Shown here: one piece after another, positions 54,829 to 59,887 of the stretch
How positions within the stretch are numbered: position 1 is the first letter of the stretch
Layout of the letters: each line of letters starts with the position of its first letter
Source of the DNA: Adhaeribacter soli
Lineage (GTDB): Bacteria > Bacteroidota > Bacteroidia > Cytophagales > Hymenobacteraceae
Length of the DNA stretch: 64,000 nucleotides
Assembly (NCBI RefSeq): GCF_008727925.1
Contig: NZ_VTWT01000007.1
Location: forward strand, 248,001 to 312,000
Direction: 5' to 3'
Position numbers and translations under genes: made by a program
The notes under the pieces: generated by a model
What the model saw: only the letters and a program-made list of their open reading frames with translations
The model's database searches: none
What the model was told of the DNA's origin: nothing

Positions 54829-55263
54829 ATGGAAAACGTACACAAAGATCTGGTTGGTTATGCCCTGAAAGTCTGGTTTACTACTCTGATCCTGGCGCCG
54901 CTGAATTACTTTCTGATCATCATTTACCTGTTGCCCGAAGCCCGCACCTTAACCCAGGCCGAAGGCATTACCCAAAGCTTTTACGTGTGGATCGCCTGCC
55001 TGTGGGGCTACTTTCCGACGCTGCTCTTTTTTCTGATCATTCAGAATTTACTTAAAAATAAACTGCCGGTAAGCCAGGGCGCAAGAATTTTGCTGGTACT
55101 GGCCGTAATCCTGTTTTCGGCAATTAACATCTTTGTGGCCGGTAACCTGAACGGATTTTCCAGTTTGATCTGGTGCGCTTCCATAAATTGCCAGCTGGCT
55201 TTTATTGCGGCTTTCTCCGTGATCCTGATGCTGGCTTCCTATTATTTCCTTCCCTGGGAATAG
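54829..55263 (+). CDS. Small four-helix membrane protein, hypothetical
   Basis: 144 residues from ATG at 54829. Four hydrophobic segments (VWFTTLILAPLNYFLIIIYL, FPTLLFFLIIQNLL, ILLVLAVILFSAINIFVAGN, FIAAFSVILMLASYYFLPW). No motif or family recognised. It lies between two inverted 28-bp repeats and beside a long hairpin, so it is the only gene in a repeat-bounded block. Start 15 bp after a terminator, which implies a promoter within a very short space or readthrough. Confidence 0.65.
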   Translation: MENVHKDLVGYALKVWFTTLILAPLNYFLIIIYLLPEARTLTQAEGITQSFYVWIACLWGYFPTLLFFLIIQNLLKNKLPVSQGARILLVLAVILFSAINIFVAGNLNGFSSLIWCASINCQLAFIAAFSVILMLASYYFLPWE

Positions 55264-55371
55264 AAGCTGCCCGAAATACACTTGTCTGTTGAGTGAGGGT
55301 GAAACAACTCGTTGGCTAATAATAATACCAGTTCTTTTAAAGCTTGTTCCATTCCTGTAATTACCTTGATC

Positions 55372-55450
55372 GCTGGTGCGAGCCTCCGGCTCGTATCGGA
55401 ATTATTTGATCAGGTATTGAAAGTGATACGAGCCGGAGGCTCGCACCAGC
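55372..55450. repeat. 26-bp perfect inverted repeat (79-bp hairpin)
   Basis: Left arm 55372-55397 (begins GCTGGTGCGAGCC) and right arm 55425-55450 are exact reverse complements, separated by a 27-nt loop. Each arm holds its own palindrome CGAGCC-TCC-GGCTCG. It is GC-rich in an AT-rich spacer. No T-run follows, so a simple terminator is unlikely. Confidence 0.9.
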
Positions 55451-55627
55451 ATAAGTATTTAATGGAATTGGCTTTTGGCGATTTGGTATAATTTCGTTGT
55501 TTTGGGCTTTTCTGTTGCGAGCCAACGAGGTCCTTCGCTGGCGCTCAGGAAGACATAATTAAAAACTGCAGTACGGTTGTTGATGAAAACACCAACAACG
55601 GCAAATTGTTTTAATGTTTTTGATCTT

Positions 55628-55655
55628 GATACTAATATCCAGATACCAATGTCTT
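55628..55655 (-). repeat. Right copy of the 28-bp inverted word pair
   Basis: Reverse complement of 54615-54642 with one mismatch; the central 21 bp (55628-55648) are identical. Confidence 0.8.
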
Positions 55656-55660
55656 TATAC

Positions 55661-56620
55661 TTACTTCAGTGAAGCGATAAAGCCGGTAAGTTTCGGGGTT
55701 AGGGCCGGGGCGAGCGGAAGTTCCGCGTTGTTGTAGGTAGCCATGTTCTTTTGCGGATCGGCGGTGGAAGTTTTCAGCACGTGGTTCATGCCTTCGATTA
55801 GGACCAGTTTGCTTTTTTTGTTGGCTGCAGCCAGAAGGCGGGCATCTTTTTCGGTTACCTGAAGGTCGGTGGTGCCCTGCACGAGGAAGACCGGCATCGT
55901 TAATTTGGCGATCTCAATTTGTGGATCGTATTTCATCCAGGAAATGAGGTAAGGTTGAACGCTTTCGCGGAACAAGGCAGCAAACATGGGGTTTACATTG
56001 GCTACGGTTTTGCCTTTGGCTAATTCTTCCAGAATGGGCAAGGCTTCGTCGGATATTTGTTTTGGCTGGCCTTTTAACTGCTCCCTGATTATTTTATCGG
56101 CAGTTTGTCCGGCGCCGGCTACAGAGATAAAGGCATCGGCTTTGGCTTTTTGCGCTGCCATCATCCCGATCAGGGAGCCTTCGCTATGGCCCAGGATAAT
56201 CACCTTACTAAACTTCGGATCTTCTTTCAGTTTCGTGGCCCAATCGGCGGCATCGTTTACCAGGTGGTCGAACAGCATATCATTTTCCCTGGCAGGTCCG
56301 GCCGGGGCATTTTCTCCGATTCCCCGTTTGTCGTAGCGCAAGCTGGCAATACCGGCTTTGGAGAGGTCTTCGGCTACCATTTTCAGGTGGTTGTTCTGCA
56401 TCATGGGGTTGTTGCCGTTTTTATCGGTAGGGCCGGAGCCGCTGATGATCAGGACAACCGGGATTGGTTTTTCGGCCGGAATTCTGAGCAGAGTGCCTTT
56501 CAGGATGCCGGACCGGGTGGTAAGCTCCAGCGTTTTTTCTACGGCCGAAGGTGTGTTTGCGGCAAATAGTTGCGACATCGTGAAGAAGAAAACGAACAGG
56601 GAAAGATTAACTGATTTCAT
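55661..56620 (-). CDS. Secreted alpha/beta hydrolase
   Basis: 319 residues with a signal peptide (LSLFVFFFTMSQLFAANT). Alpha/beta-hydrolase landmarks: PVVLIISGSGPTDKNGNNPM (oxyanion strand), SLRYDKRGIGE, the nucleophile elbow VIILGHSEGSLIG, VFLVQGTTDLQVT (acid) and GMNHVLKT (His). It is probably an esterase or peptidase-like enzyme acting in the periplasm; the substrate is unknown. It lies 35 bp after sdpI in the same direction and is likely the third gene of the SdpR-controlled operon. Confidence 0.9.
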   Translation of the reverse strand: MKSVNLSLFVFFFTMSQLFAANTPSAVEKTLELTTRSGILKGTLLRIPAEKPIPVVLIISGSGPTDKNGNNPMMQNNHLKMVAEDLSKAGIASLRYDKRGIGENAPAGPARENDMLFDHLVNDAADWATKLKEDPKFSKVIILGHSEGSLIGMMAAQKAKADAFISVAGAGQTADKIIREQLKGQPKQISDEALPILEELAKGKTVANVNPMFAALFRESVQPYLISWMKYDPQIEIAKLTMPVFLVQGTTDLQVTEKDARLLAAANKKSKLVLIEGMNHVLKTSTADPQKNMATYNNAELPLAPALTPKLTGFIASLK

Positions 56621-56655
56621 AACGATAAGTTTATATGCCTGATGATTTTGAAGGA

Positions 56656-57324
56656 TTAATGCGTACCATTCTGGCGGGAAAATTTCCGGTAGAGGAGGTA
56701 CGAGTAAACCACGGGTACAATTACCAGAATTCCGATGTAAATAACAACAATAGCCGGATGGGCTTTTTCAGATGCCAGCACCAGCATTAACAGGATCAGC
56801 GAGGCCCCAACCCAAAGCTTTCCGGCAAAACGGTGGGTTTTCTTCCATACTTCATCGTTGCTCAGCGTCCAAGGGGTGCGGATGCCTACAAAATAATTCG
56901 GGCGCACCGCACTGAAATAATTACCTAAGATCATGAAAACCACCGCCACGCCGGCAACTACCAGTTTAGGAAAAAGGAGGGAAGAGGCGCCTTTAAGCAT
57001 GGAAACGGTAAGCAGGACAAAGATAAAAACCATGAACAGGTGGATCAGCAGCCGAATGGCTTTGTAACGGCCTTCGAACAAGGCATAATTTTCCTTCCGC
57101 GGATCGATCTTCGGCAGGTATTTTAAAAGCAGGTACAGGAAAATGTTAATTACCGGCAGCATGAGTAAACCAAACGATTTGGGACCATAGTTATCGGCTT
57201 CGCCTTTGTGGTTGAAATGAATCGGCACCCGGTCCGGGTAATCGTTCCAGGTAAAAGCCAAGTACACAAAAGGAACTATAAGCAGCAGGAAGATCAGGAA
57301 TTCGGTTTTTGAATGGTTTTTCAT
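56656..57324 (-). CDS. SdpI-family membrane protein
   Basis: 222 residues with six membrane helices. N-terminal DUF1648 part (WNDYPDRVPIHFNHKGEADN, then YGPKSFGLLMLPVINIFLYL) and C-terminal SdpI part (NYFVGIRTPWTLSNDEVWKK, THRFAGKLWVGASL). In Bacillus SdpI gives immunity to the SdpC toxin peptide and also signals to SdpR. Here there is no sdpABC toxin locus, so immunity is only a possibility; in many bacteria such proteins are of unknown role. It follows sdpR by 6 bp. Confidence 0.9.
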   Translation of the reverse strand: MKNHSKTEFLIFLLLIVPFVYLAFTWNDYPDRVPIHFNHKGEADNYGPKSFGLLMLPVINIFLYLLLKYLPKIDPRKENYALFEGRYKAIRLLIHLFMVFIFVLLTVSMLKGASSLLFPKLVVAGVAVVFMILGNYFSAVRPNYFVGIRTPWTLSNDEVWKKTHRFAGKLWVGASLILLMLVLASEKAHPAIVVIYIGILVIVPVVYSYLLYRKFSRQNGTH

Positions 57325-57330
57325 AACGTT

Positions 57331-57594
57331 TTATTTATCCTTTTTAAGTAGGTCCATTACCCATTTGGCCAGTTCGTCGAACACGGTGGTGTTCAGGGAA
57401 TACATGATGAACTGGCCTTTCCGGACGGCTACCACCACTTCCGCTTTCTTTAACAATTCCAGGTGGTGCGAAATACTGGGCTTGCTGATGTTGAAAGCCT
57501 CGGCAATTTCTCCGGCCGATAAGTCCTTCTCACGGAGCAGTTCGATGATCTTCCGCCGGGTAGGATCATCTAAAGCTTTGAATAAAGCGTTCAT
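57331..57594 (-). CDS. SdpR-type ArsR-family repressor
   Basis: 87 residues from ATG at 57594 (MNALFKALDDPTRRKIIELL). A longer frame to 57630 is in phase but runs through the operator palindrome, so the shorter start is chosen. Winged helix-turn-helix: GEIAEAFNISKPSISHHLEL with LLKKAEVVVAVRKGQFIMYS. It lacks the metal-binding cysteines of ArsR/SmtB proteins and matches the SdpR branch. In Bacillus SdpR represses its own sdpRI operon until SdpI traps it at the membrane. The same gene order here suggests the same loop. Confidence 0.9.
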   Translation of the reverse strand: MNALFKALDDPTRRKIIELLREKDLSAGEIAEAFNISKPSISHHLELLKKAEVVVAVRKGQFIMYSLNTTVFDELAKWVMDLLKKDK

Positions 57595-57618
57595 GCCAGC
57601 CTCTTTTCTTTTATTTAG

Positions 57619-57642
57619 GTATTTAGACAAATATCTAAATAC
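57619..57642 (-). promoter_or_regulatory. Probable SdpR operator
   Basis: The perfect inverted repeat GTATTTAGA (57619-57627) - 6 bp - TCTAAATAC (57634-57642) lies 25 bp before the sdpR start. ArsR-type dimers bind palindromes of this size. Autorepression is inferred from the family and position. Confidence 0.7.
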
Positions 57643-57821
57643 TGTCGGTTAAATCAAAAAAAAAAGTTACGCCTTGTTTTTAACATTTATAAATTGCTAT
57701 ATAACTATTAAAATAAAAAATTAGGATATTTCAACCCGAAGAATATTGGAGCGTATAAACAACCGTTACCATGTTGTAGAAGCAGTAGTATTTATCTTTA
57801 ACCTTTGATTATTAGTAGCTT

Positions 57822-58001
57822 ATGAAAAGAATGTTTATCTGTTTTTTTGCACTTTTCCTGATGGCTCCGCTGGAAGCAGCCTTTGCAGAAACGATGGCAG
57901 CGGGTAAAGAAAATGCCGGTTATTCCAACTTTATGAAGAAGAGAAAGAAAAAGAAAGGTGGAAAAAAAGGCAAAACCAAACCACCCAAAATTAAACACTA
58001 A
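57822..58001 (+). CDS. Small secreted lysine-rich peptide A
   Basis: 59 residues from ATG at 57822. Signal peptide MKRMFICFFALFLMAPLEAA with a likely cut after FAE or AFA (around 22-23). A short linker (TMAAGKENAGYSNFM) and a strongly basic tail (KKRKKKKGGKKGKTKPPK) follow, then IKH. No cysteine is in the mature part. It is transcribed away from sdpR-sdpI. I recognise no family. The basic tail could bind nucleic acid, lipopolysaccharide or membranes; an antimicrobial role is only a guess. Confidence 0.65.
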   Translation: MKRMFICFFALFLMAPLEAAFAETMAAGKENAGYSNFMKKRKKKKGGKKGKTKPPKIKH

Positions 58002-58272: not shown

Positions 58273-58464
58273 ATGAAAAAGATAATTATCTATACGCTGG
58301 CAGCAATGCTGGTTTTACCCGCCGTAGGTTCAGAACCAACGCGCGACCCGAATACGAATAAAACCGTTACTATTTCGAAGCCCTCCTTATTCGGAAAGAA
58401 AAAGCCGAAGGTCAGAAAAATGAAAAAGAAATACGTGTACCGTCCGGGTGCCCGGCAGAACTAG
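58273..58464 (+). CDS. Small secreted lysine-rich peptide B
   Basis: 63 residues from ATG at 58273 (MKKIIIYTLAAMLVLPAVGS signal). A longer frame to 58216 adds no signal. The mature part is EPTRDPNTNKTVTISKPSLF followed by a basic stretch (GKKKPKVRKMKKKYVYRPG) and ARQN. It has the same layout as peptide A 271 bp upstream (signal, short polar linker, Lys-rich tail), but sequence identity is limited to the basic run. Function unknown. A strong bidirectional terminator follows. Confidence 0.65.
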   Translation: MKKIIIYTLAAMLVLPAVGSEPTRDPNTNKTVTISKPSLFGKKKPKVRKMKKKYVYRPGARQN

Positions 58465-58470
58465 TTTTAA

Positions 58471-58510
58471 ATACAAAACCCTACCATTTTGCAATGGTAG
58501 GGTTTTGTAT
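58471..58510. terminator. Bidirectional terminator
   Basis: An 18-bp perfect stem (58471-58488 starting ATACAAAACCC with 58493-58510) has a 4-nt loop TTGC. It lies between convergent peptide B and lutB; its right arm ends exactly where the lutB coding region ends. Confidence 0.85.
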
Positions 58511-59887
58511 TTAGGAAGGGTGCTGTTCTTTCCAAAGCTGGCGGAACGATTTAGGGGCTGCCTGTAAAGGTTCGCGGCGTTTGCTCCAGGTTTCTTTCTG
58601 CACTTTGCGGAGGAAGTAATTTTTAATGCCAACCGGGGCCATGTCGAGCAGGCGCGGGTGTTTCATGCCGTATTCCCAGAATTTGAAAACGTAGCGTTCC
58701 TGTTTTTCTACCAGGCCTTCGTCTACGCTTTGCTTGCGGTTTAGCAGGAGCAGGTTGTGCAGGTTTATTTTTACCGGGCAAACCGAAGTACAGGCGCCGC
58801 ACAGCGAACTGGCGTAACTCAGGTGTTTGTTTTCGGCCATGCCGCTCATATGCGGCTCTATTACCGAACCAATAGGGCCGGAATACGTGGTTTCGTAGGT
58901 GTGGCCGCCAATGTTTTTATAGACCGGGCAAATGTTCAGACAGGCGCCGCAACGGATGCAGTTCAGGGCTTCGCGTTTGTCGGGTTGGGCTAATAAATTG
59001 GTGCGGCCGTTATCTAATAAGATCACGTACATTTCGTCCGGACCGTCTTTTTCAGTGGGCTGACGCGGGCCGGTAATTACGGTATTATACACGGTAACCT
59101 GTTGCCCGGTGCCACTGGTGCTCAGCAAAGGCCAGAACAGATCGAGGTCGTTAATGGAAGGCAGCATTTTTTCGATGCCCACCACTACAATGTGCGTTTT
59201 CGGGAAGGTGGTGCTTAAGCGGGCGTTGCCTTCGTTTTCGGTAAGGGCAATTCCTCCTACATCGGCCAGAATGAAATTAGCGCCGGTTATCCCAATTTCA
59301 GCTGAAGTATATTTTTCGCGGAGCAGCCGACGGGCAGTTAAAACCAGTTGCTGGGCATCGTCGGTGGGCTGAATGCGGAGTTTTTTTACGAATAGGTCAG
59401 CAATGTCTTTTTTAGACATGTGCATGGCCGGCGTTACGATGTGGTAGGGGCGCTGGTCAGCTAATTGCACGATGTATTCGCCCAAGTCGGTTTCCACTAC
59501 ATCGATGCCATTTTTTTCGAGGAAGGTATTCAGGTGAATTTCTTCCGTGATCATGGATTTGGACTTCACCACCGTTTTGGCTTTTTTCCGCTTCATGATC
59601 TGGCCGATTTCTTTTAAAGCCTCTTCGGCGTTCTGGGCCCAGATCACTTTGCCGCCGCGCTGGGTAAAATTATTCTCGAACTCGATCAGGTATTTATCGA
59701 GGTTGTTGATGGTAGTGGTTTTGATAAAAGATGCCCGTTGGCGCGCCAGTTCGTGGTTGCTGTACTGGTGCATGCCTTTTTCTACCGCGGCGTTGTATTT
59801 GCCGATGTTGAAACGGATCTTTTTCCGGTGCTCGAGATCAAACGCCTTCGCCTCCGATTCCAATAAAAATTGTTTTAATCTGTTCAC
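58511..59887 (-). CDS. lutB: LutB/LldF-type lactate-oxidation iron-sulfur protein
   Basis: 458 residues from a GTG at 59887 (GTG AAC AGA TTA). DUF162 part (IVKSKSMITEEI-like VVKSKSMITEEIHLN, ANFILADVGGIALTENEGNA). Two 4Fe-4S clusters: CIRCGACLNICPVYKNIGGH and CGACTSVCPVKINLHNLL. The C-terminal DUF3390-like region is shortened. With LutA and LutC it forms the cytosolic L-lactate dehydrogenase. Neither partner is adjacent in this window, which is unusual for a lut operon. Confidence 0.92.
   Translation of the reverse strand: MNRLKQFLLESEAKAFDLEHRKKIRFNIGKYNAAVEKGMHQYSNHELARQRASFIKTTTINNLDKYLIEFENNFTQRGGKVIWAQNAEEALKEIGQIMKRKKAKTVVKSKSMITEEIHLNTFLEKNGIDVVETDLGEYIVQLADQRPYHIVTPAMHMSKKDIADLFVKKLRIQPTDDAQQLVLTARRLLREKYTSAEIGITGANFILADVGGIALTENEGNARLSTTFPKTHIVVVGIEKMLPSINDLDLFWPLLSTSGTGQQVTVYNTVITGPRQPTEKDGPDEMYVILLDNGRTNLLAQPDKREALNCIRCGACLNICPVYKNIGGHTYETTYSGPIGSVIEPHMSGMAENKHLSYASSLCGACTSVCPVKINLHNLLLLNRKQSVDEGLVEKQERYVFKFWEYGMKHPRLLDMAPVGIKNYFLRKVQKETWSKRREPLQAAPKSFRQLWKEQHPS

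What the first reader, a model, noticed from the sequence alone, without database searches (positions are those of the whole stretch)
57331..57642. SdpR operator can be read directly
A perfect 9-6-9 inverted repeat (GTATTTAGA ... TCTAAATAC) lies 25 bp before the selected sdpR start and overlaps the spurious N-terminal extension of the frame. It predicts an autoregulated sdpR-sdpI-hydrolase operon. Adding a secreted hydrolase to an sdpRI pair is not the Bacillus arrangement.
Basis: partly seen in the sequence, partly recalled or inferred. Interest (0 to 1): 0.5.

Follow-up and report, generated by a model that had tools for sequence, protein, structure and literature searches.

The report
Conserved SdpR operator, operon with hydrolase
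The palindrome in front of sdpR is a real, widely conserved likely repressor-binding site lying on the gene's own promoter region, and it heads a three-gene membrane-toxin-response operon whose added exported hydrolase recurs, sometimes fused to the membrane protein, in other bacteria.

Summary
Confirmed. GTATTTAGA-N6-TCTAAATAC lies at 57619-57642, 24 nt before the sdpR ATG (57594, - strand). Its core, TTAG-N8-CTAA, is exact upstream of 65 of 69 SdpR genes (window plus 68 loci, mostly Bacteroidota and Caulobacterales; 0.24 expected by shuffling), absent upstream of 12 other ArsR genes, and strong at only one place in this genome. In many Bacteroidota-type loci it covers a promoter-like TTTG/GATATTTG pair. 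So SdpR very probably represses its own operon by promoter occlusion, as a one-operon regulator.

The operon is sdpR-sdpI-alpha/beta-hydrolase (gaps 6 and 35 nt). The hydrolase has a signal-peptide-like N-terminus, an intact Ser-Asp-His set and a feruloyl-esterase/monoacylglycerol-lipase fold. A related hydrolase is the next gene after sdpI in 29 of 63 loci with room, and in three Spirosomataceae it is fused in frame to SdpI. Relatives of it also occur alone. The genome has no SdpC toxin hit, so the trigger is probably foreign.

Binding, sensing and substrate are inferred. Best filed as a new variant of the Bacillus SdpRI module.

The parts
57619..57642 (-). perfect 9-6-9 palindrome GTATTTAGA-N6-TCTAAATAC, the SdpR operator as first described
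57623..57638 (-). conserved operator core TTAG-N8-CTAA
   Evidence: exact upstream of 65 of 69 SdpR genes; position table; controls
57615..57618 (-). third half-site CTAA, 4 nt beyond the core (direct repeat of the right half-site)
   Evidence: its last two letters AA are conserved in 48 and 49 of 49 Bacteroidota-type loci; CTAA in 19, TGAA in 11, TTAA in 8 of 49
57655..57658 (-). predicted -33 promoter element TTTG
   Evidence: TTG starting 18-21 nt before the core in 21 of 34 non-Hymenobacter loci, control blocks mean 2.7, maximum 6; consensus from passages of PMC6847099
57628..57635 (-). predicted -7 element GATATTTG inside the operator (5 of the 6 near-invariant positions of TAHHTTTG), 19 nt after the TTTG
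57331..57594 (-). sdpR, ArsR-type autorepressor of the SdpR family, 87 aa
   Evidence: NF033789 128.5 bits against cut-off 100; start supported
56656..57324 (-). sdpI, polytopic membrane protein, 222 aa, 6 nt after sdpR
   Evidence: PF13630 85.5 bits and PF07853 59.2 bits, both over cut-off; hydropathy peaks
55661..56620 (-). probably exported alpha/beta hydrolase, 319 aa, 35 nt after sdpI; catalytic set S146, D252, H280
   Evidence: PF12146 59.1 bits; S146, D252, H280 invariant in 22 of 22; model pLDDT 90.3 and fold matches; signal peptide judged by eye

Best explanation
The palindrome is the operator of SdpR. A SdpR dimer binds TTAG-N8-CTAA (and possibly a second protomer pair through the third half-site), covers the promoter of the sdpR-sdpI-hydrolase operon and keeps it low. 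SdpI sits in the inner membrane. When a membrane-active toxin reaches it, SdpI captures SdpR at the membrane, as in Bacillus subtilis, and the operon switches on. More SdpI then gives immunity, and the hydrolase is exported to the periplasm, where it either destroys the inducing molecule or removes damaged lipid esters. Because the genome encodes no recognisable SdpC toxin, the trigger is most likely made by other bacteria. Shown here: the sequence, its conservation, its place on a promoter-like pair, its uniqueness as a strong site in the genome, the operon layout, and the recurrence and fusion of the hydrolase. Inferred: DNA binding, sensing by SdpI, export, substrate.
For: Operator: TTAG-N8-CTAA exact in 65 of 69 upstream regions against 0.24 expected; of spacers 0 to 14 only 8 is enriched (65; every other at most 1). 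Outside those regions 3 sites in 498,053 bases; none in 300 bp upstream of the matches in 12 non-SdpR ArsR loci, none in the 6 loci of this genome's other ArsR genes. In 194 genomes of the order, 21 have SdpR at E 1e-24 or better and 19 of these have a model match directly upstream; of the 12 best model matches (E under 1e-4), 11 lie at sdpR. Own genome: one strong match, E 2.7e-7, next 0.32 (which scored the best 150 of 2,122 first-look candidates). Promoter overlap. In 18 Caulobacterales-type loci CTTG stands at one fixed distance before the core in 18 of 18, and a second tandem dyad ends on the start codon in 17 of 18. No cysteine in P0001, so no metal or redox switch of the usual cysteine kind. 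Operon: gaps 6 and 35 nt; hydrolase next after sdpI in 29 of 63 loci with 2 kb or more downstream; in-frame fusions in L033, L036 and L048. In the order set all 5 genomes with both SdpR and a P0003-like hydrolase (E 1e-20) have them adjacent. No SdpC hit in the genome.
Against: No binding, expression or toxin data. The 69 regions are not independent: 15 are Hymenobacter and 18 Caulobacterales-type. Four of 69 have one core mismatch (L041, L054, L070, L087). In the order set 2 of the 21 SdpR genomes, G087 and G191, have an altered core (one or more mismatches) and no SdpI found beside it. Twelve genomes without such an SdpR also have model matches at E 0.01 or better, all weak (3.4e-4 or worse), and G191's best model match (L120) lies at the end of an unrelated gene. 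The hydrolase is not found (tblastn E 1e-4) in 34 of the 63 loci with room, among them the 14 Hymenobacter loci with room; and 12 of 17 order genomes with a P0003-like hydrolase have no such SdpR, with no SdpI near it in the 11 of those 12 whose loci I read. The tree does not make the operon hydrolases one clade, leaves the window's copy unresolved and nearest by path to stand-alone ones. The -7 element lacks the first T of the consensus, and 13 of 34 non-Hymenobacter loci lack the TTG at the expected place.
Confidence: 0.72

Rival explanations
1. The operator and autoregulation are real, but the hydrolase is only a passenger: a common exported carboxylesterase that happened to land behind sdpI and shares the transcript without sharing the function.
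For: Closest relatives of the window's hydrolase in the order are stand-alone genes (44-53% identity; tree); the hydrolase is not found in 34 of 63 loci with room.
Against: Hydrolases of at least two types follow sdpI directly in several families and, by the tree's labels, three phyla; all 5 of 5 order genomes with both genes have them adjacent; three species fuse them in frame.
Confidence: 0.22
2. The palindrome acts as an RNA hairpin or attenuator in the sdpR leader, not as DNA operator.
For: A 9-bp stem could form in RNA; the predicted start of transcription is close by. I did not run a folding test.
Against: The predicted start falls inside the palindrome, so the left arm would not be transcribed. 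The letters themselves are invariant rather than the pairing (T0, T1, C12 to A15 in 49 of 49). The core holds the same letters and spacing in Caulobacterales-type loci, where it lies 14-15 nt before the ATG, and it is AT-rich with no T tract after it.
Confidence: 0.04
3. The site belongs to another ArsR-family or global regulator (NolR-like) and not to SdpR.
For: NolR uses (A/T)TTAG-N9-A(T/A) or (A/T)TTAG-N8-GA(T/A)G, the same half-site and spacing (passages of PMC8960804 and PMC12445080); a NolR structure is among the sequence matches of SdpR (4omy, E 4.7e-4).
Against: Model matches lie at sdpR in 19 of the 21 SdpR genomes of the order set and this genome has one strong site only, as expected for a local autorepressor; six other ArsR loci of the genome lack it.
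Confidence: 0.04
4. The divergent small secreted basic ORF at 57822-58001 is a bacteriocin-like partner (toxin or ligand) of the sdpRI-hydrolase operon.
For: It is small, basic, signal-peptide-like and adjacent; in 59 genomes including its own only weak other matches (E 0.026 and 0.07).
Against: The congener G001, which lacks the operon at this place, has another small secreted basic ORF there. Only 2 of 66 other loci have a cationic small ORF with a hydrophobic start within 700 bp upstream of sdpR, and they are unlike each other.
Confidence: 0.05

Closest known systems
Bacillus subtilis SdpRI immunity operon (SdpC-SdpI-SdpR pathway)
   Same: Same two families in the same order; autorepressor first, membrane protein second; autoregulation. 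The Bacillus velezensis copy (L054) carries the same kind of site with one core mismatch. Mechanism as described in passages of PMC1626106, PMC3210768 and PMC6818787.
   Different: A third gene for an exported hydrolase; no SdpC hit and no SdpB over cut-off in the genome; Bacteroidota-type promoter-like pair under the operator.
Bacillus subtilis yfhL-yfhM operon (sigma-W regulon)
   Same: SdpI/YfhL-family gene in an operon that gives some SdpC resistance (passages of PMC3498285 and PMC3210768); that YfhM is an epoxide-hydrolase-like alpha/beta hydrolase is recalled.
   Different: No SdpR; controlled by sigma factors; the hydrolase is, from recall, not exported.
NolR of Sinorhizobium (ArsR family)
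   Same: Sequence match to SdpR (PDB 4omy, E 4.7e-4), TTAG half-site and N8/N9 spacing, no cysteine (passage).
   Different: Regulator with asymmetric sites, 308 predicted in one genome (passage), against one local symmetric strong site here.
Cinnamoyl/feruloyl esterases and monoacylglycerol lipases (PDB 7wwh, 3pfb, 7q4j, 6eic)
   Same: Same fold over the mature hydrolase, Z 23-27 over 238-248 residues; Ser-Asp-His set conserved.
   Different: 17-23% identity; substrate unknown; exported and encoded with sdpRI.

Membership tests
SdpR family (NF033789, autorepressor) | score over the curated cut-off | tested here: met
   128.5 bits against 100
SdpR family (NF033789, autorepressor) | encoded directly before sdpI | tested here: met
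   6 nt apart; SdpI found in 66 of 68 relatives' loci, the other two (L050, L072) ending just after or inside sdpR
SdpR family (NF033789, autorepressor) | conserved site overlapping its own promoter-like sequence | tested here: met
   by conservation and position only; binding and transcription not measured
SdpR family (NF033789, autorepressor) | sequestered at the membrane by SdpI | not testable with these tools
   described for B. subtilis (passages)
SdpI/YfhL family | PF13630 with N-terminal DUF1648 and several membrane helices | tested here: met
SdpI/YfhL family | gives immunity to a membrane toxin | not testable with these tools
   no assay
SDP cannibalism system (sdpABC + sdpRI) | SdpC toxin gene | tested here: not met
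   TIGR04032: no match at E 0.1 in the genome, while the B. subtilis control rings
SDP cannibalism system (sdpABC + sdpRI) | SdpB maturation protein | tested here: not met
   TIGR04033: best 21 bits (E 3.7e-4) against cut-off 178.4
ArsR/SmtB metalloregulators | metal-binding Cys set or alpha-5 Asp/His set | tested here: not met
   no Cys in P0001 and no His in its last 40 residues; the only invariant Cys or His in the alignment is H44, in the presumed recognition helix
Serine alpha/beta hydrolases (Hydrolase_4 / S33) | nucleophile elbow GxSxG with Asp and His | tested here: met
   GHSEG with S146, D252, H280 invariant in 22 of 22
EstD esterases (NF041096) | score over the curated cut-off | tested here: not met
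   99.6 bits against 600

The most novel reading that the evidence does not exclude
SdpI plus exported hydrolase is a receptor-enzyme immunity module, spread across phyla under one conserved operator, that senses ester-containing membrane toxins (such as lipopeptides or depsipeptides) made by other bacteria and breaks them down at the cell surface; in Fibrella and Fibrivirga receptor and enzyme are made as one polyprotein that signal peptidase may separate.
Probability: 0.25. Interest if true: 0.75.

Novelty: new variant of a known kind. Interest (0 to 1): 0.5.

Why it matters
SdpI-family proteins are widespread, and one recent paper notes that SdpI is so far the only characterised member (PMC11995493 passage). 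A readable operator lets one look for the regulon of any SdpR, and a promoter fusion gives a ready reporter to screen for the inducing molecule. The recurrent and sometimes fused hydrolase suggests what the module does beyond passive immunity: it would make SdpRI a detoxification operon against foreign membrane toxins, testable in harmless environmental bacteria.

Tried and rejected
Regulon inside the genome: the second-best pattern site (C13:129115, 1 mismatch) lies inside a reading frame, and the other sites are at the level of the reversed control; rejected as regulon members. Of the weaker model matches in this genome (E 0.32 and up) I read no neighbourhoods beyond a tblastn against the five local proteins (no hits).

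First motif scan used a wrong spacer (N7) for the core and is superseded. An earlier count said 13 genomes with a site and no SdpR; the right count is 12.

Divergent small secreted ORF as toxin: rejected as above. The second one (58273-58464) has an orthologue in G001, whose best SdpR match is only 34% identical.

SdpABC partner: PF26137, recalled as SdpC, does not exist in the library; TIGR04032 and TIGR04033, also recalled, were confirmed by the names the tool printed. SdpA was not sought.

Operon hydrolases as one lineage: not supported by the tree (5 label changes, at least 2 forced by starred branches).

Fold search with the fusion model: the 50 rows shown are all alpha/beta-hydrolase-fold proteins, so it says nothing about the SdpI half. 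The model draws one straight helix through the junction, so it does not settle the topology there.

Literature: no paper in the library holds SdpR, SdpI and 'operator'. SdpI with esterase and operon gives one paper, PMC9030240, seen only as listing. 'SdpI family' with hydrolase gives 4, of which 3 were listed and none read. The SdpI family survey PMC2910880 is not held; the founding SdpRI paper was not looked up. An operator published there would be missed.

Full report
What is there. On the - strand the genes run sdpR (57594-57331), sdpI (57324-56656) and an alpha/beta hydrolase (56620-55661), with gaps of 6 and 35 nt. SdpR scores 128.5 bits against the NF033789 cut-off of 100. SdpI carries PF13630 and PF07853; the hydrolase carries PF12146. 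The palindrome GTATTTAGA-N6-TCTAAATAC is exact at 57619-57642, 24 nt before the ATG. The ATG at 57594 is right and the longer TTG frame spurious: the first two residues (MN) are invariant in 20 of 20 aligned SdpR proteins and 16 of the 20 begin MNALFKAL.

Is the palindrome conserved? A scan of genome contigs with SdpR gave 80 loci. For the 68 whose match begins at residue 1, plus the window, I read up to 140 bases upstream; the other 12 are not SdpR-type and served as controls. TTAG-N8-CTAA is exact in 65 of 69 and within one mismatch in 69 of 69; mononucleotide shuffles predict 0.24; of spacers 0 to 14 only 8 is enriched. Elsewhere in the same 68 loci there are 3 sites in 498,053 bases, and none within 300 bp upstream of the matches in the 12 control loci. 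By record title the 68 include Bacteroidota, Fodinibius, a Kapaibacterium, Brevundimonas and other Caulobacterales, a Mycoplasmatota bacterium and Bacillus velezensis (the last with one core mismatch). They are not independent: 15 are Hymenobacter and 18 Caulobacterales-type.

Shape of the site. In 49 Bacteroidota-type loci (window included) the consensus is TATTTAGAYATTTGYCTAAATAnnTAA; the last AA belongs to a third half-site, a direct repeat of CTAA (CTAA in 19, TGAA in 11, TTAA in 8 of 49). In the 18 Caulobacterales-type loci a CTTG stands at a fixed place before the core in 18 of 18, and a second dyad TTAG-N8-CTA overlaps the start codon in 17 of 18. Two genomes of the order (G060, G152) carry two full sites 24 bases apart.

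Promoter overlap. Bacteroidota promoters are described as TTTG at -33 and TAHHTTTG at -7, the -33 part being less evident in Flavobacterium johnsoniae data (passages of PMC6847099). The asymmetric centre of the operator, GAYATTTG, matches 5 of 6 near-invariant positions of the -7 element. In 21 of 34 non-Hymenobacter loci a TTG starts 18-21 bases before the core, against a mean of 2.7 and a maximum of 6 in control blocks; 13 of 34 lack it. In the window TTTG (57658-57655), 19 nt, then GATATTTG (57635-57628) fits. A bound dimer would cover the -7 element and the predicted start. The generic sigma-70 scan finds nothing at this place on this strand, as expected for this phylum.

One operon or a regulon? 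A sequence-only model of the site (28 sequences) finds one strong site in the 4.97 Mb genome, E 2.7e-7, the next 0.32; 150 of 2,122 first-look candidates were scored. In 194 genomes of the order, 21 hold an SdpR at E 1e-24 or better and 19 of these have a model match directly upstream. Read directly, the 20 SdpR loci other than the window's have an exact core within 120 bases in 18. G152, missed by the model, has two exact cores 65 and 89 bases upstream; G087 has a degenerate site and G191 a core with one mismatch, both without SdpI beside them. Against this, 12 genomes without such an SdpR have model matches, all weak (E 3.4e-4 or worse), and one match under 1e-4, in G191, sits at the end of an unrelated gene. 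So SdpR looks like a local autorepressor.

The third gene. A relative of the window's hydrolase (tblastn E 1e-4) is the next gene after sdpI in 29 loci, of 63 with at least 2 kb downstream: 16 of 17 Caulobacterales-type and 13 of 46 others. Two forms occur: about 310-375 aa, and about 465-472 aa with an extra N-terminal part (Pontibacter, Fodinibius, a Chitinophagaceae genome). In Fibrivirga algicola, Fibrella forsythiae and Fibrella rubiginis SdpI and hydrolase are one frame of 535-536 aa, joined by a signal-peptide-like stretch ending in AxA-Q or VxA-Q; for the Fibrivirga protein Pfam finds SdpI, DUF1648 and Hydrolase_4 in the one chain. Its AlphaFold model has mean pLDDT 91.9, with a weak spot at 224-228, just before the possible cleavage site. 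Signal peptides were judged by eye and hydropathy; no dedicated predictor was available.

The counter-evidence is as clear. In the order set 17 genomes hold a P0003-like hydrolase (E 1e-20), 5 of them next to sdpI and 12 without such an SdpR; I read 11 of those 12 neighbourhoods and found no SdpI. The tree leaves the window's copy unresolved, nearest by path to stand-alone ones, and does not unite the operon copies. I read this as repeated recruitment of a common exported esterase into sdpRI operons, which, with the fusions, argues for a shared function rather than chance.

What the hydrolase is. S146 of GHSEG, D252 and H280 are invariant in 22 of 22 aligned. The model (mean pLDDT 90.3) matches feruloyl, cinnamoyl and PET-type esterases at Z 26-27 over 242-249 residues and monoacylglycerol lipases at Z about 21-23. 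An ester substrate is therefore likelier than a peptide, though peptidases of the same fold (DPP4, tricorn factor F1) also match.

Setting. The only congener held, G001, lacks the operon at this place: the neighbours at 54829-55263 and from 58273 are there, with a different small secreted ORF between them, and its best SdpR match anywhere is 34% identical. The operon is thus accessory, gained here or lost there. The genome gives no SdpC hit and no SdpB over cut-off, and three further short SdpI-family frames.

Known work. In B. subtilis SdpI responds to the SDP toxin, probably by binding it, and holds the autorepressor SdpR at the membrane, which turns on sdpRI (passages of PMC1626106; PMC3210768; PMC6818787). 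Secondary SdpC resistance comes from yknWXYZ and, less, yfhLM. TTAG half-sites with N8 or N9 spacing are known for the ArsR-family NolR (passages of PMC8960804, and PMC12445080). In the searches no title or passage that I saw describes an SdpR operator or an sdpRI-hydrolase operon; most listed papers were not opened, and most subscription papers are not held.

Verdict. The module is a new variant of the known SdpRI kind; the operator's breadth and the recurrent, sometimes fused hydrolase are the points a specialist would not expect.

Noticed in passing
window 57822-58001 (+): Small, very basic, signal-peptide-like ORF (59 aa) divergent from sdpR, without clear homologues in the 58 other genomes searched; the congener has a different small secreted basic ORF at the same place (L188 8431-8625).
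   Followed up: yes
window 58273-58464 (+): Second small secreted basic ORF (63 aa), 55% identical to one in the congener G001, followed by a perfect 21-bp inverted repeat (58468-58513) that looks like a terminator.
   Followed up: partly
window 55264-57700: The whole sdpR-sdpI-hydrolase block is absent from the syntenic place in the only congener held, so it is accessory in this genus.
   Followed up: yes
G000 C16:169342, C9:209771, C9:210231 (L183-L185): Three more short SdpI-family frames over the Pfam cut-off, two of them in tandem; no SdpR-family hit lies near them.
   Followed up: no
L156, L157 (G087, G191): A second SdpR-like group with an altered site (TTAAATATTTGTTTAA, TTAGATATTTGCTTAA), no SdpI found beside it, and shared other neighbours.
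   Followed up: partly
L059 5207-5617 and similar Hymenobacter loci: About 200-250 bp after sdpI, where others have the hydrolase, several Hymenobacter loci have a secreted-looking protein of about 138 aa; the one scanned has a CarboxypepD_reg-like domain.
   Followed up: partly
L152 and L144 (G060, G152): Two full TTAG-N8-CTAA sites 24 bp apart upstream of sdpR, suggesting stacked operators.
   Followed up: no
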